Shown one piece after another: positions 2 to 42,900 of a stretch of DNA of 42,900 nt. How positions within the stretch are numbered: position 1 is the first letter of the stretch; the number at the start of each line of letters is the position of its first letter. The position numbers were made by a program, and so were the translations under genes. The notes beneath the pieces were generated by a model, which searched no databases, was not told the DNA's origin, and worked only from the letters and a program-made list of their open reading frames with translations. This stretch comes from Cytophagales bacterium (lineage in GTDB: Bacteria; Bacteroidota; Bacteroidia; Cytophagales; CCMP332): NCBI GenBank assembly GCA_028279065.1, contig JANQSY010000027.1:1-42900 (forward strand), in the 5' to 3' direction.

Positions 2-2236
2 GCAAAAGCCCCTGAGGGAGAGGTTCTATTTACCGTTGCAGGTGAATCCACCTCCCTTGAAGAATTCAACTACGTTTATAACAAAAGTAATGGCAGGCAG
101 GACGATGCCTACACAGAAAAAAGCCTTAAAGAATACCTGGATCTATATGTGAATTTCAGGTTGAAGATCAAGGAAGCAATGGAGCTTCGAATGGATACCT
201 CAATGGCTTTCAATGAGGAGTTAGCGCAGTACAGAAAGCAAGCCGCTCAGCCTTATCTGACCTCTAAGGAGACCCTTGAAAAACTGATGAAAGAGGCTTA
301 TGACAGAATGCAGGAGGAAGTCAGGGCATCACACATTTTGATCAGGGTTGGTCCCGACGCACTTCCTGAGGACACGGCAAAGGCATACACCTCAATTCAA
401 AACCTCCGCAACCAGATCATTGGAGGTGCGGATTTTGGAAAAATCGCGAGATCAAATTCCCAAGACCCATCAGCAGCTGAGAACTCCGGGGATCTCGGAT
501 ACTTCAGCGCTTTCGCAATGGTTTATCCCTTTGAAAGCAGGGCATATAATACTCCTGTAGGTGAGGTATCCGATTTTTTCAGAACCGACTTTGGCTATCA
601 TTTCATGAAAGTTCAAGACCGCCGCCCGACCAAGGGAACAGTAAGGGTTGCTCACATCATGCTAAGAGCCTCAGCAGGAATGGACCCCGAAGACTCCCTA
701 GCTGCCAAACAAAAAATAGAAGAGATCTACAAGGAGCTAAAAAATGGAGCTGAATGGAGCAAAATGGTCAACGAGTATTCCGAGGACGGTTATTCAAAGG
801 TTAAAGACGGCGAACTGGATCCTTTGAACGTGAACTCAAGGATCGTGCCCGAATTCAAGGAAAGGGCATTGAATATGAATGAGCCTGGTGAGCTGACGGA
901 ACCATTTCAAACAGCATATGGATGGCATATCATCAAATTCATCAGCAGGGATCTACAGAAATCCTATGAAGAAATGGAACCCCAGCTCAAGAAATGGGTT
1001 GAAAGGGATGCCAGGGCAAAGGTTCAAAAAACTACCCTTGTGAAAAGGCTAAAGCAAGAGAACAATTTCAAAGAATACCCCAAGAACCTTGATTGGTTTG
1101 CATCTCAGGTGGATTCAACCATTTTCGATGGAAATTTCGCGGTCGCTGAGGGCAATAAAAAATATCAGAAGAGCCTCTTCACCCTTAACAAGGATGGATT
1201 CAGTTCTATGGATTTTCTTGAATTCCTAAAGATGAGAAGGCCAAAATCCGATATCTCACCTGAATTCTTTGTCAGATTGCATTACCCTCAATTTGTGGAG
1301 GAATCGATAATAAAGTATGAGGAAGACCAACTTGAGAAAAAGTACTATGACTTTAAAATGCTCATGAACGAATACCATGATGGTATCCTGATGTTCAATT
1401 TGATGGAGGAAAGGATCTGGAACGAATCGACCAGGGATACCGCCGGCCTTGAAGCCTTTTTCAATGATAACCAGGATGATTTTCAATGGGGAGAAAGAGC
1501 GGAGGCATGGGTCTTTGATTGTAAAAGCGAATCCATCTTAAAAATCGTTGATGAGGAATTAGAAAGAGGGTTGTTCAGCGTTTCCAGACCCATACCAGGA
1601 ACCTACTACTACGAATTCAGATCAAAGGAATTGAGTGAGAATGATCTGAACATTTTCCTTGCAAGATTAAAAGTACTTGTCAATAATCCTGATCTGAGGG
1701 CAAAGGTCACTGTGAACTCATATCCAAAAGAGAGTTACGGAAAATACAGCAAGATCGGTGAAGAAAGGATCTCCTATATCAAGGAAAAGGCGGGAGAATT
1801 AGGCCTTCCTGAAGGGTCCGTCGAATATGTAAATGCAGGGACCAAGGATGCTGATGAAGACCCCGCCAAAGCCAGGAAGATCAGTGTGGTTTTCTATTCT
1901 GTAAACCCTAAGGACCTTCAGGCCAGTTTGAATAAAGCCGCTCCTTTGAGCCTAAACACAAGGACTGGAAAATTCGAAAAAGGTGATAATGAATTTGTAG
2001 ATCAGGTAGAATGGAAAGCCGGAACCTATGAGGTATCAAATGGGGATAGGGTGGTGAAGGTGAAGATCTTTGACACAGAGGATCCCAGGCCCAAAAAACT
2101 TGATGAAGTGAAGGGTGAGGCAATTTCGGCTTACCAGGACCATTTGGAAAAGGAATGGATAAAGGAATTGAAGGCAAAATACCCCGTTGAGATCAATGAG
2201 GAGGTATTTAAAACCCTAATTAAAGCCAACCCTTGA
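2..2236 (+). CDS. PpiC/SurA-type peptidyl-prolyl isomerase (5' partial)
   Basis: The reading frame is open from base 2, so the gene begins before the window. The first visible residues (a strand then LEEFNYVYNKSN) resemble the start of the mature part of Bacteroidota periplasmic isomerases, so probably only a signal peptide and a few residues are missing. Two parvulin-type rotamase domains follow, at about visible residues 107-207 (ASHILI ... GDLGYF ... FGYHFMKV) and 214-318 (AHIML ... YGWHIIKF). The remaining ~420 residues are a charged region with no domain I recognise. The likely role is chaperone/isomerase for outer-membrane or secreted proteins in the periplasm. It heads an operon: its TGA overlaps the TTG start of the next gene. 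A GTG at 149 is internal and not a credible start. Confidence 0.9.
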   Translation, partial: AKAPEGEVLFTVAGESTSLEEFNYVYNKSNGRQDDAYTEKSLKEYLDLYVNFRLKIKEAMELRMDTSMAFNEELAQYRKQAAQPYLTSKETLEKLMKEAYDRMQEEVRASHILIRVGPDALPEDTAKAYTSIQNLRNQIIGGADFGKIARSNSQDPSAAENSGDLGYFSAFAMVYPFESRAYNTPVGEVSDFFRTDFGYHFMKVQDRRPTKGTVRVAHIMLRASAGMDPEDSLAAKQKIEEIYKELKNGAEWSKMVNEYSEDGYSKVKDGELDPLNVNSRIVPEFKERALNMNEPGELTEPFQTAYGWHIIKFISRDLQKSYEEMEPQLKKWVERDARAKVQKTTLVKRLKQENNFKEYPKNLDWFASQVDSTIFDGNFAVAEGNKKYQKSLFTLNKDGFSSMDFLEFLKMRRPKSDISPEFFVRLHYPQFVEESIIKYEEDQLEKKYYDFKMLMNEYHDGILMFNLMEERIWNESTRDTAGLEAFFNDNQDDFQWGERAEAWVFDCKSESILKIVDEELERGLFSVSRPIPGTYYYEFRSKELSENDLNIFLARLKVLVNNPDLRAKVTVNSYPKESYGKYSKIGEERISYIKEKAGELGLPEGSVEYVNAGTKDADEDPAKARKISVVFYSVNPKDLQASLNKAAPLSLNTRTGKFEKGDNEFVDQVEWKAGTYEVSNGDRVVKVKIFDTEDPRPKKLDEVKGEAISAYQDHLEKEWIKELKAKYPVEINEEVFKTLIKANP

Positions 2237-3096
2237 GGTATTCCCCTTTCTTTTTTTTACTCATTATGATTGTTGGGGGATGTCAGCTTATCTCCTCTGA
2301 TAAAAAGGAAGAAAAGGAGGAAAGGATACCCCTGGCAAGAGTTGGAGAAAAGATCCTTTACGCAGATGACCTTGGATCCGTTACATCAACCGCACAAACA
2401 AGCAGGGACAGTGCGGACCTGGCTTCCAGGTACATCAAGAGTTGGGTCAAAAACGAGTTGTTGCTGAAAAGGGCAGAAGAATCAGTGGAATTCGACCTAA
2501 AGGAGATTAACCGGAAGGTCAACGATTACAGATATTCCCTCATGGTATTTGAGTTTAAAAAAGAATATATCGCACAGAATCTGGATACCGCAATTACCGA
2601 AGAAGACATCAAGGAGTATTATGATTCTCATATCGATAACTTCCTTTTGAAACAAAACATTATCAGAGGTAAGTATTTTCAAGCGCCACTTGAGGCTCCC
2701 AAACTTAAAAAAGCCAAAGATTGGATCAGAAGTGGTGAAGAAAAGGATCTTGAGAAACTGAATTCCTTCTGCATTCAGTTTGCTACCAGTTACAGCCTGG
2801 AGGACACCCTATGGATCAATTTTGATGACCTGATCCTGAACACTCCATTTCAGGCTATCCCAAACAAGATCCAGTTCCTGAAACGGAATCCCTTTGCAGA
2901 ATCGAGCGATTCCCTGTTTCAATATTGCCTGTTGATCAAGGATTATAAAATCCAGGACCAACTTTCCCCGTTAGAGTTTGTACGTGACCAGATCACCAAG
3001 ATCCTGATCAACAAACGAAAGGTGGAACTCAGTAAACAATTGGAGGAAAAGATCCTTAAGGAAGCCCGGCAAACTAAAAGTTTTGAGATCTATTAG
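2233..3096 (+). CDS. Lipoprotein of the SurA-like operon, no isomerase domain
   Basis: A 287-residue protein with a short hydrophobic signal ending in a lipobox (IVGGC, Cys at residue 17), so it is probably lipid-anchored. The TTG at 2233 overlaps the preceding stop (TTGA). The only alternative, ATG at 2266, would leave no signal peptide, so TTG is preferred. The body is helical and charged, like the N-terminal chaperone part of SurA/PpiC proteins, and I see no rotamase HIL...GYH signature. Sandwiched between two isomerase genes, it probably acts with them in folding of envelope proteins. The exact function is unknown; the helical-chaperone reading is inference from composition and position. 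Confidence 0.8.
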   Translation: MRYSPFFFLLIMIVGGCQLISSDKKEEKEERIPLARVGEKILYADDLGSVTSTAQTSRDSADLASRYIKSWVKNELLLKRAEESVEFDLKEINRKVNDYRYSLMVFEFKKEYIAQNLDTAITEEDIKEYYDSHIDNFLLKQNIIRGKYFQAPLEAPKLKKAKDWIRSGEEKDLEKLNSFCIQFATSYSLEDTLWINFDDLILNTPFQAIPNKIQFLKRNPFAESSDSLFQYCLLIKDYKIQDQLSPLEFVRDQITKILINKRKVELSKQLEEKILKEARQTKSFEIY

Positions 3097-4435
3097 ATTC
3101 AAAATCCTTCTTATGCTGACCCTAGGGTCAGCATCAGCCCTGTTCGGCCAGGACTCAACAAATTCTGTTGTGGTGGATAAGATCGTGGCCAAAGTGGACC
3201 AGTTCATCATCCTGAAGTCGGAAGCAGAACTGAATTATCTACAATACCTCAGTAGCGGTCAGGATCTGAGGGGAGATGTGAAATGCAGGGTTTTTGAGAG
3301 CCTTATCATCAATAAGCTTTTGTTAGCCAAAGCAGAGATCGACTCCGTGACGGTTGAAGACCAAATGGTGGAAGCTAATCTGGACCAGAGGATGCAGGTT
3401 TTCATATCGCAGTTTGGATCCGAGTCCAGGCTTGAGGAGTATTATGGAAAGACCATCGAGGAGTTCAAGGAGGAATTTCGGGAACAAGTTAGAGACCAGT
3501 TGATCATCCAAAGAATGGATGATAAGATCACGAGCCACATCGACGTCACCCCAAAAGAGGTAAGGAGGTTCTTTTCCAAGATCCCGGAGGATAGCCTTCC
3601 ATACTTCTCTACTGAGGTAGAAATAGGCCAGATCGTACACAAGGTGAAACAGGGAAGCGGTTCAAGGAAGGATGTGATCAGCAAGCTCCGGGAGATCAAA
3701 GGAAAAATAGAGGCAGGTTTTGATTTTGGTGAGATGGCAAGATTGTATTCCGAGGATCCGGGCAACAAAGGCAAGGGGGGAGAGCTAGGTTTCTGGAAAA
3801 AAACCGACCTTGATCCTGATTATGTGGCGGCGGCCATGGCTTTGAAGCCAGGAGAAGTTTCTGATGTAGTCCATTCACAGTTTGGCTTTCACCTAATTCA
3901 ATTGATCGAAGTGAGAGGCAATGAATTCAATTCAAGGCATATCCTTTTAAGGCCAACATTTTCAGGAAAGGATGTCGAACATGCTGCCGCCTACCTTGAT
4001 AGCATTCGTAAGCTGATCGTTGTGGACTCCATGCCTTTCGAAAAAGCAGCAAGGGATTTCTCAGAGGACATAGTTACCAGTTCAAACGGAGGGATCTTCC
4101 AGGACCAGCAAAGCGGATCAACCAGGATCCCGATGGAAAATGTGGATACAGAGCTCTTTTTTATTTTGGATTCAATGGAAGTGGGGGCCGTCACAAAACC
4201 TCTTGCCTATCGAACCTATGATGGAACGGATGCTCTTCGTCTGATCTATTTCAAATCCAAGGTGCCCCCTCATCAGGCCAATCTCGGCGATGACTACCAG
4301 AAGATCTATTTTGCGGCCCTTGACCAGAAACGATATTTAGCCAAAGAGGAATGGTTTTTGAAAACAAAAGATGAGGTATTCATTCAAATCGATGATGAAT
4401 ACGCCCATTGTAAGATCCTTGAAAACGAACAGTGA
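3083..4435 (+). CDS. SurA-like periplasmic peptidyl-prolyl isomerase
   Basis: A 450-residue SurA-like protein. A signal peptide (hydrophobic stretch ending SALFGQ) is followed by a helical N-terminal chaperone region with the SurA-type opening VVDKIVAKVDQFIILKSEAE, then a clear parvulin domain (EIGQIVHKV ... GELGFWKKTDL ... FGFHLIQL, about residues 173-275) and a second, more divergent rotamase-like segment (SRHILL ...). TTG at 3083 gives a complete signal peptide and a 14-bp overlap with the upstream gene; ATG at 3113 would shorten the signal. The protein would escort beta-barrel proteins across the periplasm. Its stop overlaps the start of the MoxR gene, indicating translational coupling. 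Confidence 0.9.
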   Translation: MRSIRFKILLMLTLGSASALFGQDSTNSVVVDKIVAKVDQFIILKSEAELNYLQYLSSGQDLRGDVKCRVFESLIINKLLLAKAEIDSVTVEDQMVEANLDQRMQVFISQFGSESRLEEYYGKTIEEFKEEFREQVRDQLIIQRMDDKITSHIDVTPKEVRRFFSKIPEDSLPYFSTEVEIGQIVHKVKQGSGSRKDVISKLREIKGKIEAGFDFGEMARLYSEDPGNKGKGGELGFWKKTDLDPDYVAAAMALKPGEVSDVVHSQFGFHLIQLIEVRGNEFNSRHILLRPTFSGKDVEHAAAYLDSIRKLIVVDSMPFEKAARDFSEDIVTSSNGGIFQDQQSGSTRIPMENVDTELFFILDSMEVGAVTKPLAYRTYDGTDALRLIYFKSKVPPHQANLGDDYQKIYFAALDQKRYLAKEEWFLKTKDEVFIQIDDEYAHCKILENEQ

Positions 4436-31254: not shown

Positions 31255-33318
31255 ATGAGAAAACTATTTCTTCCATTCATTTTGGCTGGGACCCTTCTGT
31301 CCTGCGATCCATCACAAAACCAATCCGAAGTGAAACTGCCTGATAACCCCTTCCTAACGGAATTGAACCAACCAATTGATTTTCAAAATATTACATCCGA
31401 AGACATCAAGGCCTATGCCCAGATCGCCCTGGATATCTCCGTTGCGATCAGAGAGGAAATAAAAGGTCTTGAAAACCCCTCATTTGAAGAGCTCTTCTTT
31501 CCTTATGATAAAATGACTGGTGACCTTGGCCAAGCCTATCAGATCACCCATATGCTTTATTGGGTCTCTCCGGATTCGGCTTCGAGGGCTGAAGGAGAAA
31601 AGGGATTGCAGCGGCTGGATTCGATCTACAACAATATCTCATCGGACAAGGGACTTTATCAGCAGTTCGTAAACTTCAGGGATGGTGAAGAATACCAAGG
31701 TCTCCAGGGGCACAGAAAGCTTTTGGTCGATGATATCATTTTTGAAATGGAAAGAGCCGGTGTTTCCCTTGAGGATCAGGATCTGGAAAGGTTTAGAAAG
31801 CTGAATTCGGAAATAACAGCCCTGACCTCAGAGTATTCAAAAAACATGAATACCGCCAACCATGTCCTTTCGATCTCAAAGGAGGAAGCGGCAGGAATCC
31901 CCGAGTCCTTTTTATCCAAGTATGAAAATGATAGAGGTGGATACGATATCCCGGTGATGCCCGCAACCCGGCAGCCTGTGATGAACAACGCTTCTGTTGA
32001 AGAAACCAGGAAGCAATACAATTTCCTTTATAACACCAGGGGTGCGGAGAAAAACCTTGAGATCCTGGATCAATTGGTCATCAAAAGAGATGAATTGGGA
32101 GATCTAATGGGCTATGAGACCTATGCGGGATATAATCTTGCCGCCAAAATGGCCAAAGACCCTGAGACGGTTTGGAATTTTATCCAGGACCTTATGGACA
32201 GGGCAAAGCCAAAGGCTGAAACGGAATTGGTCAAGCTCAATGAGCTTAAATCAACCGATGTTCCGGGAGAAAGCATAAAGGCCTGGGATATCCAATACTA
32301 TCAGAACAAGATCCTGAAGGAGGAATACAATGTGGATCATGAATTGATCCGCGAATACTTTCCCATGCAGGAATGCCTTGATGGTATGATGGAATTGTAC
32401 CAGGAAGTCCTTGCTGTGAGATTCGAAAAGGTAGAAAACGCCTCTGTCTGGCACGCGGATGTAGAGATGTACAGGGTATATGACGGAGAAAGATTGATGG
32501 GCATGTTCTACCTTGATCTTTTTCCCAGACCGAACAAGGAGTCCTGGTTTTATGGCGTGCCCATGATTCCTGGCAGGGAAACAGGAAACGGATATCAGGT
32601 GCCTGTTAGTATGCTGCTAGGGAATTTCACCAAACCCACCGAAGAGGTGCCTTCTTTGCTGAGTTATCGAGAGCTTAACACCCTTTTTCATGAGTTTGGG
32701 CATATTATGGATGGGATGTCCTGGAAGGGTGAATTCTCCTATCAGAGCAGTTCAAAATCAGATTTCGTTGAGGCTATGTCCCAGCTCTTTGAGAACTGGA
32801 TCGAAGATTTTGATATCATCAACTCCTTTGCCAGGCATTATGAGAGCGGGGAGCCCTTTCCCAAGGAGATGTTCGACAATATGAAGGCGTCAAAAAATGT
32901 GAGTTCAGGACTGGATCTTGTATATGGACAGAGGAGCTGTTTTTATGATATGAGTCTCTATGACAAATATGATCCGGATTCTGAGTTCAATACAAACCAG
33001 CTCTGGGTGGACCTGGATAAAGAGATCGGTCTTGGTGAGCTAAGCGATTACAATACCCAGCCTCAAGCATGCTGGATACACATCAACACTCATCCCTGCT
33101 ATTATTATGGGTATTTCTGGTCTGAGGTTTATGCCAAGGACATGTTCACCCAGTTTGAAGAAAATGGCCTGAGAGATCAGGCAACCGGAAAAAGGTACAG
33201 GGAACTGATCCTGGCCAACGGAACTCAAAGGGATATAGTTGAAGCAGTCGAAGAATTCCTTGGCAGGCCTTCAAACAACGAAGCCTACTTGAGAAGTTTG
33301 GGGTTTGAGGATAATTGA
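31255..33318 (+). CDS. M3-family metallopeptidase, lipoprotein
   Basis: A 687-residue lipoprotein (lipobox TLLSC, Cys at about residue 17) with the fold and motifs of thimet/oligopeptidase A metallopeptidases. HEFGH at residues 479-483 is the zinc site, with Glu506 (DFVEAMSQ) as the third ligand. The downstream substrate-binding part is present (KNVSSGLDLVYGQRSCFYD, then HPCYYYGYFWSEVYAKDMF). It cleaves short peptides, here probably in the periplasm or at the outer membrane. It ends at a short hairpin, followed by the REP-like repeats. Composition is like the chromosome, unlike the island that begins after it. Confidence 0.93.
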   Translation: MRKLFLPFILAGTLLSCDPSQNQSEVKLPDNPFLTELNQPIDFQNITSEDIKAYAQIALDISVAIREEIKGLENPSFEELFFPYDKMTGDLGQAYQITHMLYWVSPDSASRAEGEKGLQRLDSIYNNISSDKGLYQQFVNFRDGEEYQGLQGHRKLLVDDIIFEMERAGVSLEDQDLERFRKLNSEITALTSEYSKNMNTANHVLSISKEEAAGIPESFLSKYENDRGGYDIPVMPATRQPVMNNASVEETRKQYNFLYNTRGAEKNLEILDQLVIKRDELGDLMGYETYAGYNLAAKMAKDPETVWNFIQDLMDRAKPKAETELVKLNELKSTDVPGESIKAWDIQYYQNKILKEEYNVDHELIREYFPMQECLDGMMELYQEVLAVRFEKVENASVWHADVEMYRVYDGERLMGMFYLDLFPRPNKESWFYGVPMIPGRETGNGYQVPVSMLLGNFTKPTEEVPSLLSYRELNTLFHEFGHIMDGMSWKGEFSYQSSSKSDFVEAMSQLFENWIEDFDIINSFARHYESGEPFPKEMFDNMKASKNVSSGLDLVYGQRSCFYDMSLYDKYDPDSEFNTNQLWVDLDKEIGLGELSDYNTQPQACWIHINTHPCYYYGYFWSEVYAKDMFTQFEENGLRDQATGKRYRELILANGTQRDIVEAVEEFLGRPSNNEAYLRSLGFEDN

Positions 33319-33383
33319 AAAGGATTTGATCCTATTCTAAAATCTTGGCTTCTAACTCAAATCACAGCAATACTTGAATCAAG

Positions 33384-33406
33384 ATTCCTGTGACAAGCAC
33401 AGGAAT
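33384..33406. repeat. REP-like hairpin 1
   Basis: ATTCCTGTG (33384-33392), loop ACAAG, CACAGGAAT (33398-33406): a perfect 9-bp stem. Together with the next hairpin, 19 bp further on, it has the paired structure of REP/REPIN elements. It could also stop transcription of the M3 peptidase gene, though no T-run follows. Confidence 0.75.
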
Positions 33407-33567
33407 GACGAAAAAAATGATTGTCATCACCGGGTCATTCCCGGTGATCGTGATTCCTATTTCGGATCAGAATATGATTGATCACCGTAACATAAAAGTT
33501 TGGATCGATCTTCATATCTGCATCCTCTTTTCCGGTTTTGACCTTGGTCCAGCGGAGGTCGTTGGGG
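33395..33567 (-). pseudogene. Decayed copy A of the M1 aminopeptidase 3' end
   Basis: Read on the - strand, this matches the last ~110 bases of the M1 gene (39259-39370) and about 60 bases of its downstream flank. It encodes ND-RWT-----GKEDADMKIDPNFYVTVIN at positions matching NDRRWTNIETEKEDPQMTIDPNFYVTVIN. An extra C before the AAC of 'ND' and a missing base after the last N shift the frame, so the copy cannot be translated as in the parent. The position equivalent to the parent stop codon is 33457-33459. Confidence 0.75.
33426..33448. repeat. REP-like hairpin 2
   Basis: ATCACCGGG (33426-33434), loop TCATT, CCCGGTGAT (33440-33448): a perfect 9-bp stem. The same place downstream of the intact M1 gene (about 39228-39250) has a similar but mismatched sequence, so the hairpin belongs to the shared 3' flank and is intact only here. 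Confidence 0.75.
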
Positions 33568-33628
33568 TAAGACTAAATAATTCTTTGCCCGGTTTACAGG
33601 CTTATTCAGCAAATAGCTACATAAGATG

Positions 33629-34528
33629 CTAGCAATAGACGTACTCCCAGGTATACTCTAAATAGTTTCCTGTATTGTTCCAGGTGAATTTCTCGTAGAC
33701 TATTCTGCCGGTTTTGTTATATCTTAAAACTTTGGTAGTAATTAGTTTTTCCTTAGAATAGGTCTTAATTGTTGTCTCATTTTTTTTATAGAAAAACTTT
33801 GAACAGGTCCTAATAGTGCTAACTTCTAGTTCTTCCTTTAGCTTTTGCTTCTTACCTTTATAGTACTTATATGTGCTATATTCATTTGTGACCGTCAAAT
33901 TATTGATTCTATATTTTGTCTTAATCAACCCATCAGAATTATAATGGTATTCAAAATGTTCCTTGGTAGTAAATTCATCTACTTCAAAAAACAACTCATT
34001 GCCTAAGGAATCAAATTTTGCCGTTACAACGTTGGAAACCTTTCCTTCATCGGAATACCGAATACAACTGGAATTGTCTTCAGGGCCCTCATAAGAGCAC
34101 TCCTCTCTTAGTACAGCTGAATCATATTCAAGTATTTGCAAAACATTTATATCATTCTTTAATTCTTTTAAGCTCCTTATATTTCTTATATAGCTAAAAC
34201 CCTCCTCCGAGCTGCGATTTGATAAGTACTCATGCCTTTTTGTTTGCCTTCCCTCTGAATCGTATTCATACGTTGAAATAGTAAAACCAATATTGGAATG
34301 TCCAAAAATAGACATCTTCTTACTTCCATCATTATTAACGTATTGACCTCCAAGCATTGTAACTGGGCCATATAAATCGGTGTTTTTGAAAAAGGTCAAA
34401 AAACCAGAAGTATCAAAATGGGAGATTGATTTAATAGTCGTATCCTGATATTGAATTATAAACTTTAGTCCCTTATTATTGGAGAAAAACAATAACTTAA
34501 AAAAAAGTATAATTACGAATAATTTCAC
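33629..34528 (-). CDS. YD/RHS-repeat-like protein, AT-rich
   Basis: A 299-residue protein from GTG at 34528. A short hydrophobic N-terminus (KLFVIILFFKLLFF) may be a weak export signal or anchor. Beta-hairpin repeats of the YD/RHS type follow: STYEYDSEGRQTKRHEY, TAKFDSLGNELFFEV, YHYNSDGLIKTKYRINN, LRYNKTGRIVYEKF. The protein is Lys/Asn/Tyr-rich and the gene very AT-rich (one 60-base line, 34441-34500, has only 14 G+C), unlike the chromosome. It sits between two decayed M1 3' ends, so it looks acquired. YD-like proteins can be surface shells or toxin-related, but nothing here identifies a toxin domain. Confidence 0.65.
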   Translation of the reverse strand: MKLFVIILFFKLLFFSNNKGLKFIIQYQDTTIKSISHFDTSGFLTFFKNTDLYGPVTMLGGQYVNNDGSKKMSIFGHSNIGFTISTYEYDSEGRQTKRHEYLSNRSSEEGFSYIRNIRSLKELKNDINVLQILEYDSAVLREECSYEGPEDNSSCIRYSDEGKVSNVVTAKFDSLGNELFFEVDEFTTKEHFEYHYNSDGLIKTKYRINNLTVTNEYSTYKYYKGKKQKLKEELEVSTIRTCSKFFYKKNETTIKTYSKEKLITTKVLRYNKTGRIVYEKFTWNNTGNYLEYTWEYVYC

Positions 34529-34560
34529 TTAAGAAAATATCATTAAAAAAATAGGTTTAC

Positions 34561-34675
34561 CTATAATTGCTTTTCTATATTAAGAAACGGATTGATCAAC
34601 GTCACATAAAAATTGGAATCGATCTTCATTGGCGGATCCTCTTTCCCGGTTTCGATATTGGTCCAATGTAGGGTT
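34561..34675 (-). pseudogene. Decayed copy B of the M1 aminopeptidase 3' end
   Basis: Read on the - strand, this encodes LHWTNIETGKEDPPMKIDSNFYVTLINPF before a different ending and a stop at 34561-34563. It parallels RRWTNIETEKEDPQMTIDPNFYVTVINPY of the M1 aminopeptidase. Only the last ~30 codons are present; the rest of the gene is missing and the beta-helix gene (stop at 34686) directly abuts it in another frame. No REP-like hairpin follows this copy. Confidence 0.75.
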
Positions 34676-34685
34676 GTAAAATCAA

Positions 34686-37661
34686 CTATTCTGTTTCACC
34701 TCCACCCCCACCCGAACCGCTACAGTCAAACTCTCCAGAAGCAGTTTTCAATACACTTGTAGGGGAAACACAGGAAAATGTTGGGGGATTGGGGTTTCCG
34801 GAAGACCAAAAATATTCAGCTATTGGAGATGGATTTAAAGAAAATTGGATATCTGTTGAGTTTTGAGTCACACAATTTCCCAGAAACTCATTCATCCAAT
34901 CTTCATTTGAGCTTCCAATGTCGGGCCAGGTGCCCGAAGAGGTTACAGATATACCTATTTCATAATTCGACAATTCATTGCAGGAAACCATTGCTCCATT
35001 ACCTGATAGCCGGATCCCTATTGAAAAACCATCAATATCATTTTTATGAACAGAGTTTAATTCACTAGAGTTGGAAACCAAAATTCCAGTTGTCTCAGTA
35101 CCATTGGTGCAGGAAATTGTATTATTGGCAATATTTCCACCATTAGGGTTAGAGCTTTTTATTCCGAAATTCTCAAACGAATTATAGTAGCCCAGAGAAA
35201 TTGTATTGCCAGAGATAAAGTCATTATTCCCATTGCTGGCGGAGATACCGCTTCCACTTACATAGTTTGAAATAATTGAATTGCCAGAAATATGGGATTG
35301 AGGATTTGATCCCCCATAGGATTGGGCTTTGATCCCAAGCAAGAGGGAATTCAATGTGTTATCACTGATCTGAATTTCTCCGCCAAAGTTTATTATTCCG
35401 GTTTCTATGCTTTGCCCAAATATGGTATTTCCAGAGATCAACGGATCAGAATGCTTGTAAACCTCGATAAATGAGCTCTTCTGGGAACCGAAGGTTTGAA
35501 GAGGTTGGCCTGGCGTAAAAGTTGAATTCATGATCTTCGTTGCAGAAGTAGCGTAATTGTATTCCCCTATTTTTATGTCCAAAAGGTTATTGGTAAATTC
35601 TGCTCCATCACACCAAATAATTCCACCACCATAGAGGGATTCCCCTGAATTAATAGCAATTTCAGCATGAGTGATCTTGCTCCCTTCTGTGATCCTGATC
35701 TCCCCTTGGCTACTTGTTTGCTGGTCAGCAAAAGGATCTCCATAAACAAATACTCCTTCCCAAAAACCACAATCCAGATAGCTGGTAAGCTCAGATCCGT
35801 TCTCCATTACAACCTTGCCACCAGGTTCAATCTCCAGCCTAGAAACAACGCCAGTGGCATCAAAATTCGAGAATTTCAGGGTTGAATTGTTCAGGGTTAA
35901 AGTGGCACCATTTTTTACAATTAGCTTCTTAAAAAAGGAGTACTTCTTGTTTGTCCAATCAATATTTGAAGTTATTTCATGATTTTCTTCGAATGTGTAG
36001 GCACAAGGAATATTAGTTCTTTGATCACAAGTCATCGATTGCACTCGATCCACATAGATACCGCCATGTTGAGGAATTGGTGAAACTCCTCTGTATATAA
36101 GGTTATCAGAATTAAATTCTACCACAGCTCCACTTCCACCATCATCGATGAACTCTAAATCGTATACCTGAACACAATCCTCAATCTTGACTGAACTTCC
36201 ATTCTTAATAATATATCTTGATTGCTGTCTTGCATTAAATGGAATATCTAACACAGAATTAAATTCAAGGTTAAAAATAGATAGCTCAGAAAGGGCTTGC
36301 TGAATTTCTGCGTCTGAGGGGTAGTTAAATAACTCAGGAATTATTTTAACTGGTGTCTTAAAGATATATTCGGATGGAAATACCAGCTCAATATTGCTTG
36401 TAAGCTCAATTTCTCTTGGATTATAAATGACTTTCTCATTTGGATTAATTACTGAAACGTCAAAAGGATTATCCAAAATATATTTATGTGGCAGACCATT
36501 GGTATTGGTTGCGGACCATCTGTTTTCTTCCATCCACGTTCCTTGGTAAAACACCAATGTTGTTGGAGAGAACGAGATATAGCTTCGGGGGTTAACCCCC
36601 TGTTCGAAAGGAAATTCTTCGGGATATTGATTTGAAGGGTCGTGATTTAAATCCCCACAAGTTCCAGAATTATACCTGTATGGAAAATAATCTAAACTTT
36701 GGATCTCAGAATCACAATAATAGGCGACACAACCACAATCACAATTTGCCGGATCATCACAGGTCTTAAAAGTTGTCCAATAGGGATTTCCGTCTAGACT
36801 AATTACTTCATTGAAGCCACTTAAATTTGAAGAATGGGGAGCAATTTCAGCGACACTTACGCTGAAATCAATATCGTATTGTACGGCTTGCGAGGCTTCA
36901 GAAAAATTAAAGTCAACCCAAGGATATTCCGGATTTTCCCAAGTATGATCGACCACGAAACTTATTGATTCTACTATGGGATCAGTTATTGAATTACCGC
37001 AGTGAAAATTTATTGTATGCTTTAGGGCAGTATGAGGGAAATATATTCTTCTGTTTAATTCAGGCCCCAAGCATCTAACTTTGAAAAAAATAGAAGCCAA
37101 TGCGGAATTATATCCAGGCCCAAATGCCTCCCAATTAACCTTTCCGTGCTCTTTTGGAAAATCACCATCGACCATATCAGGACCTAAATTTTCTATGGCT
37201 CTTTTGTTGTGACGCCAAATGGGCAGCAAATTGAAATCAAGAATGCCAGGAGTGCAAGTTGATAGATCTGCTGTTATTCCTGAATAAACATTTTCAAAAA
37301 CATCTCCATTTAAAAGATTAGAATTAGGGACTTTAAATTCCCGATCGGCGGTTGAAACTTGTGGAGGAAAATGGGATGGTAAATCAGGTATAAAAGGAAA
37401 TCCAACAACTTCAATTTCATAAGAAAGAATGTAATCCTTTCCACCGGAACCCCAAGGTCCAGTTCTTAGTTTGCTGCCTACAATATCATAAATGCTGTCA
37501 AACCACTTAAAATGATCTTGATAGACATACCATTCATATTCTCCAGTATACTCCACTTTGCATTGAGGTTCTTCCTCACTTAAAGCTGGATTTTGGGCGA
37601 AGGACAATGATGGTAGGAAGATCCCAATAAAAAGTTTAAGGCATTTCTTCATTTTGGACAA
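34686..37661 (-). CDS. Secreted parallel beta-helix surface protein
   Basis: A 991-residue protein with a signal peptide (LFIGIFLPSLSFAQ). The N-terminal ~450 residues are a beta-rich region with an unusual cysteine cluster (CDDPANCDCGCVAYYC). From about residue 480 comes a right-handed parallel beta-helix: repeated ladders such as GASVSG-type turns (ISGNTIFG, ISDNTLNS, ISGNSIISN, ISGNTISLG, IANNTISC), as in NosD/pectate-lyase-like surface proteins. It ends abruptly in GSGGGGGETE without a T9SS sorting domain and abuts M1 copy B, so its C-terminus may have been lost. It starts one base after the stop of the T9SS protein, forming one operon. AT-rich island gene. Confidence 0.8.
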   Translation of the reverse strand: MSKMKKCLKLFIGIFLPSLSFAQNPALSEEEPQCKVEYTGEYEWYVYQDHFKWFDSIYDIVGSKLRTGPWGSGGKDYILSYEIEVVGFPFIPDLPSHFPPQVSTADREFKVPNSNLLNGDVFENVYSGITADLSTCTPGILDFNLLPIWRHNKRAIENLGPDMVDGDFPKEHGKVNWEAFGPGYNSALASIFFKVRCLGPELNRRIYFPHTALKHTINFHCGNSITDPIVESISFVVDHTWENPEYPWVDFNFSEASQAVQYDIDFSVSVAEIAPHSSNLSGFNEVISLDGNPYWTTFKTCDDPANCDCGCVAYYCDSEIQSLDYFPYRYNSGTCGDLNHDPSNQYPEEFPFEQGVNPRSYISFSPTTLVFYQGTWMEENRWSATNTNGLPHKYILDNPFDVSVINPNEKVIYNPREIELTSNIELVFPSEYIFKTPVKIIPELFNYPSDAEIQQALSELSIFNLEFNSVLDIPFNARQQSRYIIKNGSSVKIEDCVQVYDLEFIDDGGSGAVVEFNSDNLIYRGVSPIPQHGGIYVDRVQSMTCDQRTNIPCAYTFEENHEITSNIDWTNKKYSFFKKLIVKNGATLTLNNSTLKFSNFDATGVVSRLEIEPGGKVVMENGSELTSYLDCGFWEGVFVYGDPFADQQTSSQGEIRITEGSKITHAEIAINSGESLYGGGIIWCDGAEFTNNLLDIKIGEYNYATSATKIMNSTFTPGQPLQTFGSQKSSFIEVYKHSDPLISGNTIFGQSIETGIINFGGEIQISDNTLNSLLLGIKAQSYGGSNPQSHISGNSIISNYVSGSGISASNGNNDFISGNTISLGYYNSFENFGIKSSNPNGGNIANNTISCTNGTETTGILVSNSSELNSVHKNDIDGFSIGIRLSGNGAMVSCNELSNYEIGISVTSSGTWPDIGSSNEDWMNEFLGNCVTQNSTDIQFSLNPSPIAEYFWSSGNPNPPTFSCVSPTSVLKTASGEFDCSGSGGGGGETE

Positions 37662-37662
37662 A

Positions 37663-38934
37663 CTAACGAATTACGATTTTAGAAGTGTTAATAGATGAAT
37701 CAGAGGAAACATAAACAAGGAAAATTCCCGGACCTAGGAAACTAAGATCAAATTCAAATTCATTAGAAAACGGATATTTTTGAAATACCAGCTCTCCCAA
37801 TAAATTGAAAACCTTTACATCATTCAAAATAACATTAGAATTAACAAATAATAGACCACTTGTTGGATTGGGATAAATACTAAAATCATTTGAGCTGAGT
37901 TCTTCTTGAATCGAAGAAGGCAATGAGTTTCCGTGTTTCACCAAACTAGTCTTCTCTGGTTCGCCTGGAAATTCGAATTTACCACAGATAACTAATTCAT
38001 CGTTAAATATTTCTATTGCGGAAATTTCACTTCCCAACGGCAAAGTGTCTCCTATTGGAAAAATGTTCAAGTTCGAATCTAAATACTGAATATTTCGCCC
38101 TGTCATTCCCACTGTATATAAGTATCCATTAAAAACCTTATACGCCCCAGAAAAGCTACCTGAAATTGGAAAGAATGTTGAGGTACCAGAAGTTAAATCG
38201 AGAAGTTTATTTCCGGAGAAAACATTTCCAGCATAGACAATCAAATTACCCGGAAGGTCAATATTTGTGTTCACTAAACTATCCAAATAAGTGTATATTG
38301 AACGAGTTATGGGGGGTATTTGATTGTAGCATGGCCCTGAAAGAATAAGGGTTTCATTTTCCACATCCAAATCAGCCACATTGCATAAATTCTGTTCACT
38401 TAATACTGAATCCTTAACAAAGTTGGAGCCATTATACTTAATGAAATTCCTTGATTCAGTACTTCCAAACCCAAAAAAGGCTCCTCCAATGAGTAACTCT
38501 GATCTATATTCAATTAAAGCATTTATAGGAAATTCATTCCCAGGAGATGAAATTGAAGAATCACTTAAAAGGGACCAGTTAAGGCCATCCCATTTGGTCA
38601 TCTTTCTATCGATATATGGAAGAAAAAGGCCAGTATTTCCTGCCATAATTAACTCATCATCAAATACCCTTAAGATTTCTGCTTTTCCTGTCATTGGAAG
38701 TGGTTGCCAATCTTGTCCATCCCACATTGCATAATTTTTAATTGGATGACTACCTATGGAGTCAAACTCACCCACTGCATAAAGGTTTCCCTTAAATACT
38801 TCAATATCAAGAACCGTCCCAGGATTTGGTTGGCTGATAGAGTTGCCAAAAAACCCATCTCCAACTGATATCCATTGTCCAAACGATGGGAGAGATAATG
38901 AGATTAAAAGGAAAAGAGAAAAGACACTTTTCAT
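37663..38934 (-). CDS. T9SS-sorted propeller-like surface protein
   Basis: About 423 residues from ATG at 38934 (an earlier ATG at 39000 precedes the signal peptide). A signal peptide (VFSLFLLISLSLPSFGQ) is followed by repeated units of about 50 residues (NLYAVGEFDSIG, ELLIGGAFFGFGS, YLYTVGMTGRN, ELVICGKFEF), with W-D-G/N motifs (MWDGQDWQPL, KWDGLNWSLL) as in small propeller-type surface proteins. The last ~80 residues are a type A T9SS sorting domain: FSIYPNPTSGLLFV ... VKVFNLLGELVFQK ... IFLVYVSSDS. It would be secreted by the type IX system and anchored to the cell surface. AT-rich, and co-transcribed with the beta-helix protein. Confidence 0.88.
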   Translation of the reverse strand: MKSVFSLFLLISLSLPSFGQWISVGDGFFGNSISQPNPGTVLDIEVFKGNLYAVGEFDSIGSHPIKNYAMWDGQDWQPLPMTGKAEILRVFDDELIMAGNTGLFLPYIDRKMTKWDGLNWSLLSDSSISSPGNEFPINALIEYRSELLIGGAFFGFGSTESRNFIKYNGSNFVKDSVLSEQNLCNVADLDVENETLILSGPCYNQIPPITRSIYTYLDSLVNTNIDLPGNLIVYAGNVFSGNKLLDLTSGTSTFFPISGSFSGAYKVFNGYLYTVGMTGRNIQYLDSNLNIFPIGDTLPLGSEISAIEIFNDELVICGKFEFPGEPEKTSLVKHGNSLPSSIQEELSSNDFSIYPNPTSGLLFVNSNVILNDVKVFNLLGELVFQKYPFSNEFEFDLSFLGPGIFLVYVSSDSSINTSKIVIR

Positions 38935-39258
38935 GGAGATAAAATCTTTTGGTAACATGTATAGTAAGGGCTCATGGCTCACTTTTTTAAGGTTTGTCAA
39001 TCATGTCAGACAAGCCAGGAAATCATTAAATTACAAAATGCTGTCAAAAACTCAAAGAAGCTTGAAGAATATCAAAGGAGAGGGCCTTAGCTTCTTCTCA
39101 TTAAAGTTTCCTGCATCAATTTTTATCACACCCATTCCAGCTTCCATTTCCAAAATTGGAGTTCGATAGAATGATTCAAAGGATAAAGAAAACCAGCACC
39201 GGAATAACGACAAAGGAAATGCTTGTCATTACCCGGTCCTTCCCGCAAATCGTGATTC
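38935..39258. other. Gap between the T9SS gene and the M1 gene
   Basis: 324 bp with no credible gene. It should contain the promoter of the T9SS/beta-helix operon on the - strand, though no clean TAnnTTTG element stands out. The right-hand part (39194-39258) is the 3' flank of the M1 gene that recurs beside copy A, including the degenerate counterpart of REP-like hairpin 2. Confidence 0.6.
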
Positions 39259-40902
39259 CTATTTCGGATTGGAATACGGATTAATCACCGTAACATAAAA
39301 ATTTGGATCGATTGTCATTTGCGGATCCTCTTTTTCGGTTTCAATATTGGTCCAACGGCGGTCATTGGGGACAACCCATTGCTTTTCACCATCAACCCAT
39401 ATCGCAATGGGCATATCGAATCCTTCAATGCAATTATTCCATTTGAAGTACAGGGTTCCATCATTTCCTACTGCATAACGCAAGGTGGGTATTCTGGTAT
39501 CCCGCAAATACTGATCAAAGAATTTCGCAAGATCCTTACCTGATTTTTCGATGATATATTCCTCAACCTGTGTTGAACTAACACATTGATGATAGAAATC
39601 CTTGTTCAAACCACGCAATATGTTCCTCCATAATGAATCGTTGTCTATGATCTGCCTGACCATATGCAACATCACCGCCCCCTTGGCATACATATCACCG
39701 GACCCCTCCTGATTGACATTGTAATTCGCAATAATAGGCTTACGATTGCTGATGCTCCATTGATAAATATCCTGAATGAACTCTTCCCCCGCTTCTTTTC
39801 CAAAATGGTAATCCACGTACAGGGCCTCTGAATAATTGGTGAAGCCTTCGTGGATCCACATATCCGCGGGATCGATATGAGTGATGTTGTTCGCAAACCA
39901 CTCATGTCCTGATTCATGGATCACGATATAATCGAATTTCATTCCCCATTTGGAACCCCGACCCCTGTAACCCATCTGATATCCATTTCCATAGGTCACT
40001 GAACTTTGGTGCTCCATGCCCAGATATGGGGCTTCCACCAGTTTATATCCATCCTCATAAAAAGGATAGGGGCCAAACCAATGCTCAAATGCCTCCATGG
40101 TCTTCTCAGCCTGATCTTTTAGGTGTTTTTTGGCTATCTCTTCATTATAGCTCAGCACATAATAATCCATGTCAAGGGTTCCTTTCTCCCCCTCATACTT
40201 TTCGCTGAAATGCACATAGTCTGCTATGTTGACGTTCACTCCATAGTTGTTGATCGGGTTCACTACCTGCCAGGTGTAGGTCTTGGTACCCCTTTCCTTG
40301 TTATGTTCCGTCTTGATAAGTCGGCCATTGGATACGTCCATCAGGTTTTCCGGCACCTCAACCTTCATTATTATTCCCTCATCCGGTTCGTCATACGCGT
40401 GATCCTTATTGGGCCACCAGACGCTGGCACCCAGGCCCTGATTGGAATTGGCAATAAAATCAACACCATTTGAATCCACTGACCATGTCAATCCCCCATC
40501 CCAGGGCGGATGCTTGGCTTCTCTCGGTTTCCCTCCAAAACTCAGGACAACCTCATACTCCTGCCCTACTATTTGTTCGGGAATCGTTAAAAAATGAAAA
40601 GCCCTATCCTTTTCGAACTCGATCTCCTCGCCCTTGAAAACAGCCTTCTTCAATACCATAGGTTTCTGCAGTTCTATCTGCATGCGCTTCGGTTCGGATA
40701 TCACTTTATACCTTATAGTATTGCTTCCTTCTATAGTCATTTCTTTTGGGTCAACCTTCACCTCCAATGTATAGTGCTGAAGATCCCACCAGGCCCTTTC
40801 CGGGGTTATGGACCCTCGCAGGGTATCGTATCTGGTGAATTCCTGTGCTCTGGAGGCCTGGAAAAGGAAAACAGCAATGACAAAAAGTAAGATCCTGATC
40901 AT
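39259..40902 (-). CDS. M1-family aminopeptidase-like metallopeptidase
   Basis: A 547-residue secreted protein (signal peptide ending ASRAQ). It has the N-terminal beta-domain of M1 peptidases (HYTLEVKVDPKEMTIEGSNTIRYKV), the exopeptidase motif as GMEHQ (295-299) instead of GAMEN, the zinc motif HESGH (329-333) and the third ligand Glu352 in WIHEGFTNY, the canonical spacing. It lacks the long C-terminal helical domain of aminopeptidase N but has a short beta tail (LRYAVGNDGTLYFKWNN ... IDPNFYVTVINPY). It probably trims peptides in the periplasm or outside. The final ~110 bases recur at 34561-34675 and 33395-33567. Confidence 0.92.
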   Translation of the reverse strand: MIRILLFVIAVFLFQASRAQEFTRYDTLRGSITPERAWWDLQHYTLEVKVDPKEMTIEGSNTIRYKVISEPKRMQIELQKPMVLKKAVFKGEEIEFEKDRAFHFLTIPEQIVGQEYEVVLSFGGKPREAKHPPWDGGLTWSVDSNGVDFIANSNQGLGASVWWPNKDHAYDEPDEGIIMKVEVPENLMDVSNGRLIKTEHNKERGTKTYTWQVVNPINNYGVNVNIADYVHFSEKYEGEKGTLDMDYYVLSYNEEIAKKHLKDQAEKTMEAFEHWFGPYPFYEDGYKLVEAPYLGMEHQSSVTYGNGYQMGYRGRGSKWGMKFDYIVIHESGHEWFANNITHIDPADMWIHEGFTNYSEALYVDYHFGKEAGEEFIQDIYQWSISNRKPIIANYNVNQEGSGDMYAKGAVMLHMVRQIIDNDSLWRNILRGLNKDFYHQCVSSTQVEEYIIEKSGKDLAKFFDQYLRDTRIPTLRYAVGNDGTLYFKWNNCIEGFDMPIAIWVDGEKQWVVPNDRRWTNIETEKEDPQMTIDPNFYVTVINPYSNPK

Positions 40903-41025
40903 CTGATTAATTTTGAAAGCGAGCCAAACTAGGCCTTAAATCCTTCAATACCAAGGGGATATTATACCAAGGATAGGATGGCTTATTTGACCGCTGATCT
41001 TCCATTTTCACCCCAAGTGAAAAAC

Positions 41026-41058
41026 TTGAATTCAAAAGAATCTTTGCCCTCATCTTTG
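41026..41058 (+). promoter_or_regulatory. Candidate promoter of the GNAT gene
   Basis: TTG at 41026-41028 and CATCTTTG at 41051-41058 (one mismatch from TAnnTTTG) are 22 bases apart. The leader to the ATG at 41120 contains a 6-bp inverted repeat CTGCAA/TTGCAG (41063-41081). Confidence 0.3.
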
Positions 41059-41119
41059 TTCCCTGCAAAATTCCATTGCAGTTAATTAATTCTCAATATG
41101 GCCTTAGGGACCTTTTTTT

Positions 41120-41629
41120 ATGATCAGGGTTGAGAAAAAAGAAGACCAGGGATCAATTTACGAGATCCATAAACTGGCGTTTGGTCAGGAGGATGAATCA
41201 AGACTGGTTGATGCATTGAGGAGATCTCCTGCATATATTCCGGAACTAAGCTTGGTGTTCGAGCATGAACAGAATTTGATTGGCCATATTCTGTTTACCA
41301 GGATCTCAATCCATAAGGCTGAAGACCAAGTTTTCGAAAGTTTAGCCCTTGCACCCATGGCTATTTTGCCTCAATTTCAGAAAACGGGATTTGGGGGAGA
41401 ACTGATTCGAAATGGATTGACCAGAGCAGAAGGTCTGGGTTTTGGATCTGTGATCGTTCTTGGTCATAAGGATTATTACCCGCGTTTCGGATTCGAGTCG
41501 GCCTCCAAGTTTGGTATCAGGGCCCCTTTCGATGTCCCTGATGAAGCCTTTATGGCCTTGGAGCTTAGAAGAGCTGGGTTAAAGGAGGTCTCCGGAGTGG
41601 TTTACTACCCGAAGGAATTCGGGATCTGA
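41120..41629 (+). CDS. GNAT-family N-acetyltransferase (YhbS-like)
   Basis: A 169-residue acetyltransferase of the YhbS group. The opening IRVEKKEDQGSIYEIHKLAFGQEDESRLVDALR is followed by the LSLVFEHEQNLIGHILFT strand pair, the acetyl-CoA loop LAPMAILPQFQKTGFGGELIRNGL (QxxGxG/A) and the VIVLGHKDYYPRFGFESA segment common in the group. It transfers an acetyl group from acetyl-CoA to an unidentified amine substrate in the cytoplasm. It is a single-gene transcript closed by a hairpin terminator. Confidence 0.9.
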   Translation: MIRVEKKEDQGSIYEIHKLAFGQEDESRLVDALRRSPAYIPELSLVFEHEQNLIGHILFTRISIHKAEDQVFESLALAPMAILPQFQKTGFGGELIRNGLTRAEGLGFGSVIVLGHKDYYPRFGFESASKFGIRAPFDVPDEAFMALELRRAGLKEVSGVVYYPKEFGI

Positions 41630-41656
41630 CAACTCCCTTTATCCATTACTCCCGGG

Positions 41657-41675
41657 AAGATCTTTGATCTTTTTT
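41657..41675 (+). terminator. Rho-independent terminator of the GNAT gene
   Basis: AAGATC (41657-41662), loop TTT, GATCTT (41666-41671), followed by TTTT. It lies about 28 bp after the GNAT stop codon. The stem is short but perfect. Confidence 0.6.
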
Positions 41676-41750
41676 GAAGTATTATCCACCGGCGCTCAAA
41701 ATGACAATGTGAGTGACTGGATCCGGCAAGAGCGAGAAGCACACTAGTTT

Positions 41751-41779
41751 TTTGACTCTGATAAAAAAAATAAGCTTTG
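41751..41779 (+). promoter_or_regulatory. Candidate promoter of the BCCT gene
   Basis: TTTG at 41751-41754 and AAGCTTTG at 41772-41779 (one mismatch from TAnnTTTG) are 17 bases apart, and the ATG follows 23 bases later. Confidence 0.4.
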
Positions 41780-41802
41780 GTTTGCCCAATGATTCTTCCT
41801 TC

Positions 41803-42900
41803 ATGAAGGGAATAAAGCCTCTTGTTTTTTATCCTCCGGTGATCCTGTTGATATCAGCATCGGTTTTCAGCCTGATAGACCTTGATGCCTTCTTGTACAG
41901 CGTCAATGCAGCCAAAGATTGGATCATCAAATACTTTGGATGGCTGTTCCTTTGGGCTACCTTTTCATTCCTGGCAATCGTTTTCATTGCTCTTTTTTCC
42001 CCGATCGCCGAAAAGAGGATCGGTGGACCTAAGGCAAAACCCCTTCTCAACAAATGGCAATGGTTTTCCATCACCCTGTGCACCACTATTGCCACCGGAA
42101 TTTTATTTTGGGGGGTCGCTGAGCCGGTTTATCACATCCACAAAGGGCCTGTTGGGGTTTCGGATCCGGAGATCTTCGCCATGTCGACCATGTACATGCA
42201 TTGGACCCTTATTCCTTATGGGATCTACACCATGGCTGGTCTTGTTTTCGCCCTCGGTTTTTACAACCTCAACAAGCCCTTCTCAGTTTCTACCATGCTA
42301 TATCCCTTGTTTGGAAACAGGGCCTTTGGGCCAGTCGGCAGGATAGCGGATATCATCTGTTTGTTTGCTTTGGTCTCAGGTATGGCAGCTTCACTTGGAG
42401 GAGGAATACTTACTATTTCAGGTGGAATAGGGAAATATCTTGAATTTGATCAGGAGCCGTTTCTTTTCGGGGCCATCGCTCTAATTGTGGTGGGGGCATT
42501 CGTTGCTTCCGCGGTATCGGGATTGCAAAAAGGCATCAAATGGCTTTCCGACATCAATATGAGGTTCTTTATTGTCCTTGCTGCATTTGTTTTGCTGACC
42601 GGACCCACATTCATGATGCTGAAGCTTGGATTTAAGGGAAGCATAGACTTCCTTGTCCATTTCCTGCCAAGGAGCTTGGGCCTGGATAAAAGTCTTGATT
42701 CGGAGTGGATTGGGAGCTGGACAATTTTTAATTGGGCGAATTGGCTTGCATGGACACCGGTGACAGCGCTTTTCCTTGGCCGGATTGCCTATGGATATAC
42801 CGTAAGACAATTCATTATTTTCAATCTCCTCCTGCCGGCTCTGTTTGGATCGCTTTGGATGGTGGTCTTCAGTGGGACTACAATTGGTTTTGATCGAATC
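41803..42900 (+). CDS. BCCT-family transporter (3' partial)
   Basis: The gene runs off the window end; 366 codons are visible and the frame is open to base 42900. It has about eight hydrophobic segments and the family motifs FWGVAEPVYHI in helix 2 and ALVSGMAASLGGGILTISGG. BCCT carriers import betaine, choline, carnitine or related compounds with Na+ or H+. The signature region of the substrate site reads WTIFNWANWLAWTP, where the usual form has three tryptophans (WAWWISW-like); one is replaced by Asn (codon 42739-42741). The substrate may therefore differ from the classic ones. The ATG at 41803 is the only suitable start. Confidence 0.93.
   Translation, partial: MKGIKPLVFYPPVILLISASVFSLIDLDAFLYSVNAAKDWIIKYFGWLFLWATFSFLAIVFIALFSPIAEKRIGGPKAKPLLNKWQWFSITLCTTIATGILFWGVAEPVYHIHKGPVGVSDPEIFAMSTMYMHWTLIPYGIYTMAGLVFALGFYNLNKPFSVSTMLYPLFGNRAFGPVGRIADIICLFALVSGMAASLGGGILTISGGIGKYLEFDQEPFLFGAIALIVVGAFVASAVSGLQKGIKWLSDINMRFFIVLAAFVLLTGPTFMMLKLGFKGSIDFLVHFLPRSLGLDKSLDSEWIGSWTIFNWANWLAWTPVTALFLGRIAYGYTVRQFIIFNLLLPALFGSLWMVVFSGTTIGFDRI

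What the first reader, a model, noticed from the sequence alone, without database searches (positions are those of the whole stretch)
33395..39370. Three copies of an M1 peptidase 3' end punctuating an AT-rich surface-protein island
The last ~100 bp of the M1 gene (39259-39370) recur on the same strand at 34561-34675 and 33395-33567, each time immediately downstream of a different gene: copy B behind the beta-helix gene, copy A behind the YD-like gene. The encoded tails are alignable by eye (RWTNIETEKEDPQMTIDPNFYVTVINP, HWTNIETGKEDPPMKIDSNFYVTLINP, RWTKVKTGKEDADMKIDPNFYVTVIN) with many synonymous differences, so the copies are old paralogues rather than recent repeats. The genes between are visibly AT-rich. 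One explanation is a tandem M1 array in which gene bodies were replaced by accessory genes; another is that the conserved 3' end is a recombination site through which surface-gene cassettes are exchanged. Neither is shown; the repeats themselves are read directly.
Basis: partly seen in the sequence, partly recalled or inferred. Interest (0 to 1): 0.75.

Follow-up and report, generated by a model that had tools for sequence, protein, structure and literature searches.

The report
Leftover peptidase gene ends beside inserted genes
In this Bacteroidota genome, extra genes appear to have been slipped in at least twice next to the end of one peptidase gene, each time leaving behind a ~100-base stub of that gene's old end: a readable fossil record of stepwise gene insertion, interesting but of a kind already described elsewhere.

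Summary
The 3' end of the M1 gene (39192-39370) recurs at 33393-33567 (82%, including ~67 nt of 3' UTR) and 34579-34671 (85-86%). These are the only copies in the genome. The interval between is AT-rich (36.8% vs 44.2%). Copy A keeps the best hairpin-plus-T7 terminator, facing the convergent M3 gene, so it probably marks the original M1 end; 33568-39191 looks added.

The one congener (G001) lacks M1, tails and island at M3-BCCT. It carries the same two-gene unit (T9SS-tail protein plus 991-aa repeat protein, 40-50% identity, AT-rich) at another locus without any M1 tail. In the window's genome that other locus appears empty (two contig ends overlap by exactly 99 nt). So the gene pair changes place, but the tail is not its general exchange site.

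Best reading: stepwise additive insertion (homology-anchored illegitimate recombination) at the M1 3' end, M1-[unit 2]|tail B-[unit 1]|tail A-terminator, formally like displaced effector 3' ends in Vibrio T6SS arrays. A decayed tandem M1 array is the main rival. No integrase, att core or M1 body remnant was found. No same-species genome was available, so the mechanism is inferred.

The parts
39259..40902 (-). Full-length M1-family metallopeptidase gene (547 aa; HESGHEW...E zinc site intact)
   Evidence: Pfam PF01433 E 5.5e-16 at 264-465; PDB relatives are M1 peptidases; motif read from the translation
39192..39370 (-). M1 3' end repeat: last ~37 codons plus 67 nt of 3' UTR with a degenerate terminator hairpin
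   Evidence: 179-nt match to copy A; fold z -2.2
34579..34671 (-). Tail copy B: relic M1 3' end, no start codon or body, frame open to 34561
   Evidence: 86% to M1 over 80 nt, 71-76% protein identity over 29-31 aa
33393..33567 (-). Tail copy A: relic M1 3' end plus 3' UTR; 1-nt deletion before the stop
   Evidence: 81.6% to M1 over 179 nt; alignment
33404..33465 (-). Hairpin ACCGGG-AATGA-CCCGGT followed by TTTTTTT in the UTR of copy A: the best preserved M1 terminator, between convergent M1 tail and M3
   Evidence: Fold z -5.2, none of 200 shuffles as good. The strict terminator scan did not list it because the T run does not follow the stem directly
37663..39000 (-). 445-aa secreted protein with C-terminal T9SS type A sorting domain (first gene of the two-gene unit)
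   Evidence: PF18962 E 3.8e-10; TIGR04183 E 5.9e-11
34686..37661 (-). 991-aa repeat protein (beta-helix-like by composition, fold not confirmed), second gene of the unit
   Evidence: No Pfam/NCBIfam/PHROGs match; 49% identical gene in the congener next to the same partner; structure model too poor to use, pLDDT 31
33629..34528 (-).
   Evidence: No family match, no homologue in 98 relatives; model pLDDT 42
33568..39191 (.). Segment inferred to have been added between the M1 gene and its original 3' end (contains tail B)
   Evidence: Flanked by the M1-A direct repeat; G+C 36.8% for 33319-39258
31255..33318 (+). M3 peptidase, convergent with the M1 strand; left flank
   Evidence: PF01432 E 5e-103; 72% identical orthologue in the congener
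41713..42900 (+). BCCT transporter (cut by the window end), right flank shared with the congener
   Evidence: PF02028 E 7e-98; same contig as M3 in G001

Best explanation
The M1 gene once ended at copy A, directly facing M3 across a terminator. At least two later additions put new DNA between the M1 body and that old end. Each incoming piece carried a related M1 3' end followed by accessory genes. It joined the resident M1 gene by homology on one side, and on the other side by a non-homologous joint about 100 nt before the old M1 stop. The first addition brought tail B with the 299-aa gene and stranded tail A. The second brought the present M1 3' end with the T9SS-tail protein and the 991-aa protein, and stranded tail B with the 299-aa gene. 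The tails are therefore inert scars, not working sites. Shown: the repeats, their uniqueness, the AT-rich content, the better terminator at A, and the gene pair occurring at a different locus without tails in a congener. Inferred: the order of events, the donors and the recombination type.
For: Order M1-unit 2-tail B-unit 1-tail A-M3 and the tail lengths. The tail frames are separate from the genes before them, so they are not fused domains. Copy A alone keeps both the UTR and a strong hairpin plus T7 facing M3. No trace of M1 body or 5' region in the island. The tails differ from M1 and each other at dS ~0.55 with dN/dS 0.14-0.29, as expected of M1 alleles that diverged before being stranded, and well below the saturated dS of M3 between the two congeners (simulation). 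G001 has M3 and BCCT on one contig ~4 kb apart without M1 or island, and the two-gene unit elsewhere with no tail. The matching site in the window's genome appears empty: C145 end and C56 start share an exact 99-nt overlap. Precedent: successive insertion displacing effector genes and shifting back an effector 3' end in V. cholerae (PMC5361080).
Against: No donor genome with a closely related M1 followed by either unit was found; the best M1 relatives are ~60% identical. The joint lies near the M1 stop in both cases, which the model does not require. The signal of coding constraint in the tails is weak, and the M1-A UTR has diverged no faster than the coding part, which also fits neutral decay after a simple duplication. 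G001 is too distant to show a before/after state at this locus, and gene order around M3 has changed there.
Confidence: 0.48

Rival explanations
1. Decayed tandem M1 array: M1 was duplicated into three copies, accessory genes landed between the copies, and the bodies of two copies were later deleted, leaving 3' ends.
For: Tandem full-length M1 pairs of this subfamily occur in Flavobacterium loci L063, L071, L082 and L109, with tails 49-60% identical. The tails look like diverged, formerly coding copies.
Against: No M1 body, 5' end or upstream sequence survives beside either tail; only 32 nt separate tail B from the next gene. Two independent deletions would have had to stop at nearly the same point. 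M1 is single-copy in this subfamily in the genome; its other M1 proteins are <=34% identical and it is absent from the family relatives.
Confidence: 0.25
2. Campbell-type insertion-duplication: circular DNA carrying an M1 3' end plus accessory genes recombined once with the resident M1 end, giving direct repeats of the 3' end around the insert.
For: Direct repeats of tail plus UTR flank the insert; nothing else of M1 is duplicated.
Against: The repeat is only 82% identical with exact blocks of at most 21 nt, poor substrate unless most divergence came later. Such an insertion should also have been unstable, and B lacks the UTR.
Confidence: 0.14
3. Site-specific accretion of recombinase-less elements (CIME-like) at an attachment site in the M1 3' end.
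For: Insertion at a gene 3' end with tandem units is the CIME architecture (PMC7563491).
Against: No integrase in the island, no identical core among the three copies (longest shared blocks 21, 13 and 12 nt pairwise, none long common to all), and the repeat edges differ between copies. The gene pair in the congener has no such repeat at its ends.
Confidence: 0.07
4. Assembly artefact: a chimeric contig.
For: The genome is a 191-contig draft.
Against: The copies are 15-19% diverged, so they cannot have been collapsed or joined by an assembler. The gene pair has the same order in another genome.
Confidence: 0.03

Closest known systems
Sequential displacement arrays of T6SS effector-immunity modules in Vibrio cholerae (PMC5361080), and orphan 3' regions of Rhs/CDI genes
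   Same: An intact gene followed by its partner, then stranded 3' ends or partners of earlier versions; explained there by homology-facilitated illegitimate recombination
   Different: Here the stranded gene is a metallopeptidase, the partners look like secreted or surface proteins, no toxin or immunity family is matched, and no strain series documents the steps
CIMEs in tandem at gene 3' ends (fda, rpsI, rpmG) in Streptococcus (PMC7563491)
   Same: Recombinase-less cargo units in tandem behind a gene 3' end
   Different: No att core, no related ICE/IME, no integrase; repeats diverged and of unequal extent
Tandem M1 peptidase gene pairs in Flavobacterium (loci L063, L071, L082, L109)
   Same: Neighbouring diverged copies of the same M1 subfamily
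   Different: Full-length genes there; only the last ~100 nt here, with unrelated genes between

Membership tests
Sequential displacement array (homology-facilitated illegitimate recombination) | Intact gene followed by one or more stranded 3' ends of the same gene, each with its own downstream gene | tested here: met
   M1, then tail B with the 299-aa gene, then tail A. Tail A has no extra partner before M3, as expected for the original end
Sequential displacement array (homology-facilitated illegitimate recombination) | Stranded ends match full-length alleles with the same partner in other strains | tested here: inconclusive
   No same-species genome held; the one congener and the family relative lack M1; best M1 relatives ~60%, none with the unit
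Sequential displacement array (homology-facilitated illegitimate recombination) | Homology on one side of the insert, non-homologous joint on the other | tested here: inconclusive
   Sharp loss of M1 similarity upstream of both tails, but the pre-insertion state is not available
T6SS/CDI/Rhs effector-immunity module | Effector (toxin) gene paired with an immunity gene | tested here: not met
   M1 peptidase, T9SS-tail protein and unknown repeat proteins; no such family in Pfam, NCBIfam or PADLOC scans
CIME / integrative element | Direct repeats with an identical att core | tested here: not met
   Exact blocks of 21, 13 and 12 nt pairwise, no common core
CIME / integrative element | Related element with site-specific recombinase for the same site | tested here: not met
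   No recombinase in the island (ORF list). Other integrases of the genome were not surveyed
Tandem gene array | Remains of full gene bodies or 5' ends | tested here: not met
   Only the 3' ends match at E<0.4
T9SS cargo | C-terminal sorting domain | tested here: met
   Met for 37663-39000; not met for the 991-aa and 299-aa proteins

The most novel reading that the evidence does not exclude
The M1 3' end of this lineage is an active entry point at which T9SS/surface-gene units accumulate in strain-specific stacks, an accretion process analogous to T6SS immunity arrays but operating on surface proteins without any toxin.
Probability: 0.12. Interest if true: 0.65.

Novelty: new variant of a known kind. 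Interest (0 to 1): 0.38.

Why it matters
If the reading holds, it shows that the stepwise displacement known from toxin-immunity loci also builds stacks of secreted-protein genes in Bacteroidota. It also shows that diverged gene-end stubs can be used to order such additions from a single genome. The movable two-gene T9SS unit, found at different loci in two congeners, is a concrete case of surface-gene relocation.

Tried and rejected
Tails as a conserved C-terminal domain fused to the upstream genes: rejected, since they are out of frame and behind stop codons. Tails as a dispersed family or gene-cassette site: rejected, three copies only, and the congener's unit has none. A further remnant of M1 in the island: none. 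RNA families, tRNA, defence and phage families: none. Orphan tails near M1 in 80 other loci: none convincing; only tandem full-length genes, weak protein matches and short repeats in UTRs. UTR of copy A as a dispersed palindromic repeat: only its partner behind M1 in the genome. Structure models of the 299-aa and 991-aa proteins were too poor to search. A 'GGTGAAA' match between M1 and the sequence just upstream of tail B: seen by eye, not tested against chance, not used.

Full report
Observation. The three M1 3' ends are real and unique. Within 30-42.9 kb the only significant repeats are 33393-33567 vs 39192-39370 (81.6%, 179 nt), 34587-34666 vs 39276-39355 (86%) and 33476-33551 vs 34590-34665 (82%). 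In the whole 3.59-Mb draft genome only these three places match; the fourth hit has E=0.56. A carries a 1-nt deletion just before the old stop. The intervening DNA is AT-rich: 36.8% against 44.2%, GC3 29-35% against 47-52%.

What the parts are. M1 (39259-40902) is a full M1-family peptidase with an intact HExxH...E site; the repeated tail lies outside its catalytic domain. 37663-39000 encodes a secreted protein with a T9SS type A sorting domain. 34686-37661 (991 aa) and 33629-34528 (299 aa) match no family in Pfam, NCBIfam, PADLOC or PHROGs. The labels 'beta-helix' and 'YD-like' are composition-based guesses; the models were too poor to confirm them. The genes before the tails end in their own stop codons in other frames, so the tails are not C-terminal domains of those proteins.

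Which copy is the original end. Copy A keeps the UTR with the hairpin ATCACCGGG-AATGA-CCCGGTGAT followed by a T7 run, folding far better than shuffles (z -5.2). The corresponding UTR behind M1 is degenerate (z -2.2). Copy A sits between the M1 strand and the convergent M3 gene, the natural place for a terminator. I infer that M1 once ended at A and that 33568-39191 was added.

Relatives. The genus holds one other genome (G001) and the family one more (G002). G001 has no M1 of this kind and no tail, and G002 has no M1 of this kind. In G001, M3 (72% identical) and BCCT lie on one contig about 4 kb apart with different genes between and no island. The two-gene unit (T9SS-tail protein, then 991-aa protein) is on another G001 contig in the same order, AT-rich (mostly 36-39%, flanks 46-48%), 40% and 48% identical, and no M1 tail is next to it. 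The genes flanking it there are found in the window's genome at the end of contig C145 and the start of contig C56, and these two contig ends share an exact 99-nt overlap found nowhere else. They are therefore most likely neighbours in the assembly graph and the site is empty; this is not verified with reads. The unit thus occupies different loci in the two species, and each species lacks it at the other's locus. That argues against the tail as the unit's general exchange site, while supporting the idea that the unit moves.

How it came about. The arrangement M1 - unit 2 | tail B - 299-aa gene | tail A - terminator - M3 is what two successive additive insertions at the M1 end would leave. The same logic was proposed for V. 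cholerae T6SS loci, where incoming modules displace the effector but leave older immunity genes, and in one case an effector 3' end, downstream, perhaps by homology-facilitated illegitimate recombination (PMC5361080). The tails differ at dS ~0.55 with dN/dS 0.14-0.29. Neutral simulations reach as few amino-acid changes in 2-11% of runs. This weakly favours divergence while still coding, that is, tails from different M1 alleles. Synonymous sites of M3 between the two congeners are saturated, so the tail divergence is probably younger than that split.

Rivals. A decayed tandem M1 array gives the same final picture, and tandem M1 pairs do exist in Flavobacterium. It needs two body deletions that end at nearly the same point and leave nothing else. 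Insertion-duplication by a circle is possible but the repeats are short and diverged. CIME-like accretion (PMC7563491) lacks an att core and a recombinase. A chimeric contig is unlikely because the copies are too diverged to be confused.

Verdict. A genuine, well-delimited relic structure that most likely records stepwise insertion beside one gene. The kind of process is known, and its use here on secreted-protein genes behind a peptidase is a variant. The mechanism cannot be settled without genomes of the same species.

Noticed in passing
L141 (G001:C161) 953-3966: The congener's copy of the 991-aa gene is split into a 219-aa and a 744-aa frame with a TAG between: a pseudogene or a sequencing error.
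   Followed up: no
L141 3963-6917: In the congener two related T9SS-tail genes stand in tandem in front of the 991-aa homologue, i.e. the unit has an extra paralogue there.
   Followed up: partly
G000:C145:44797-44895 and G000:C56:1-99: Two contig ends share an exact 99-nt overlap, suggesting an assembly branch at precisely the site where the congener carries the gene unit; the source population may be mixed for the insertion.
   Followed up: partly
window 31255-41713 vs L142: The M3-BCCT interval has entirely different gene content in the two congeners (M1/GNAT/island versus membrane protein, barrel protein, T9SS protein, cytochrome c peroxidase), so it is a variable locus in its own right.
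   Followed up: partly
L063, L071, L082, L109: Tandem full-length M1 genes of the same subfamily in four Flavobacterium genomes.
   Followed up: no
L055 and L099: Bacteroidota-type M1 genes (56-58% identical) in records named Thalassomonas and Bacteriovorax: transfer or mislabelled contigs.
   Followed up: no
window 39001-39191: About 190 nt between the M1 3' UTR and the T9SS gene without detectable similarity to anything in the window.
   Followed up: no
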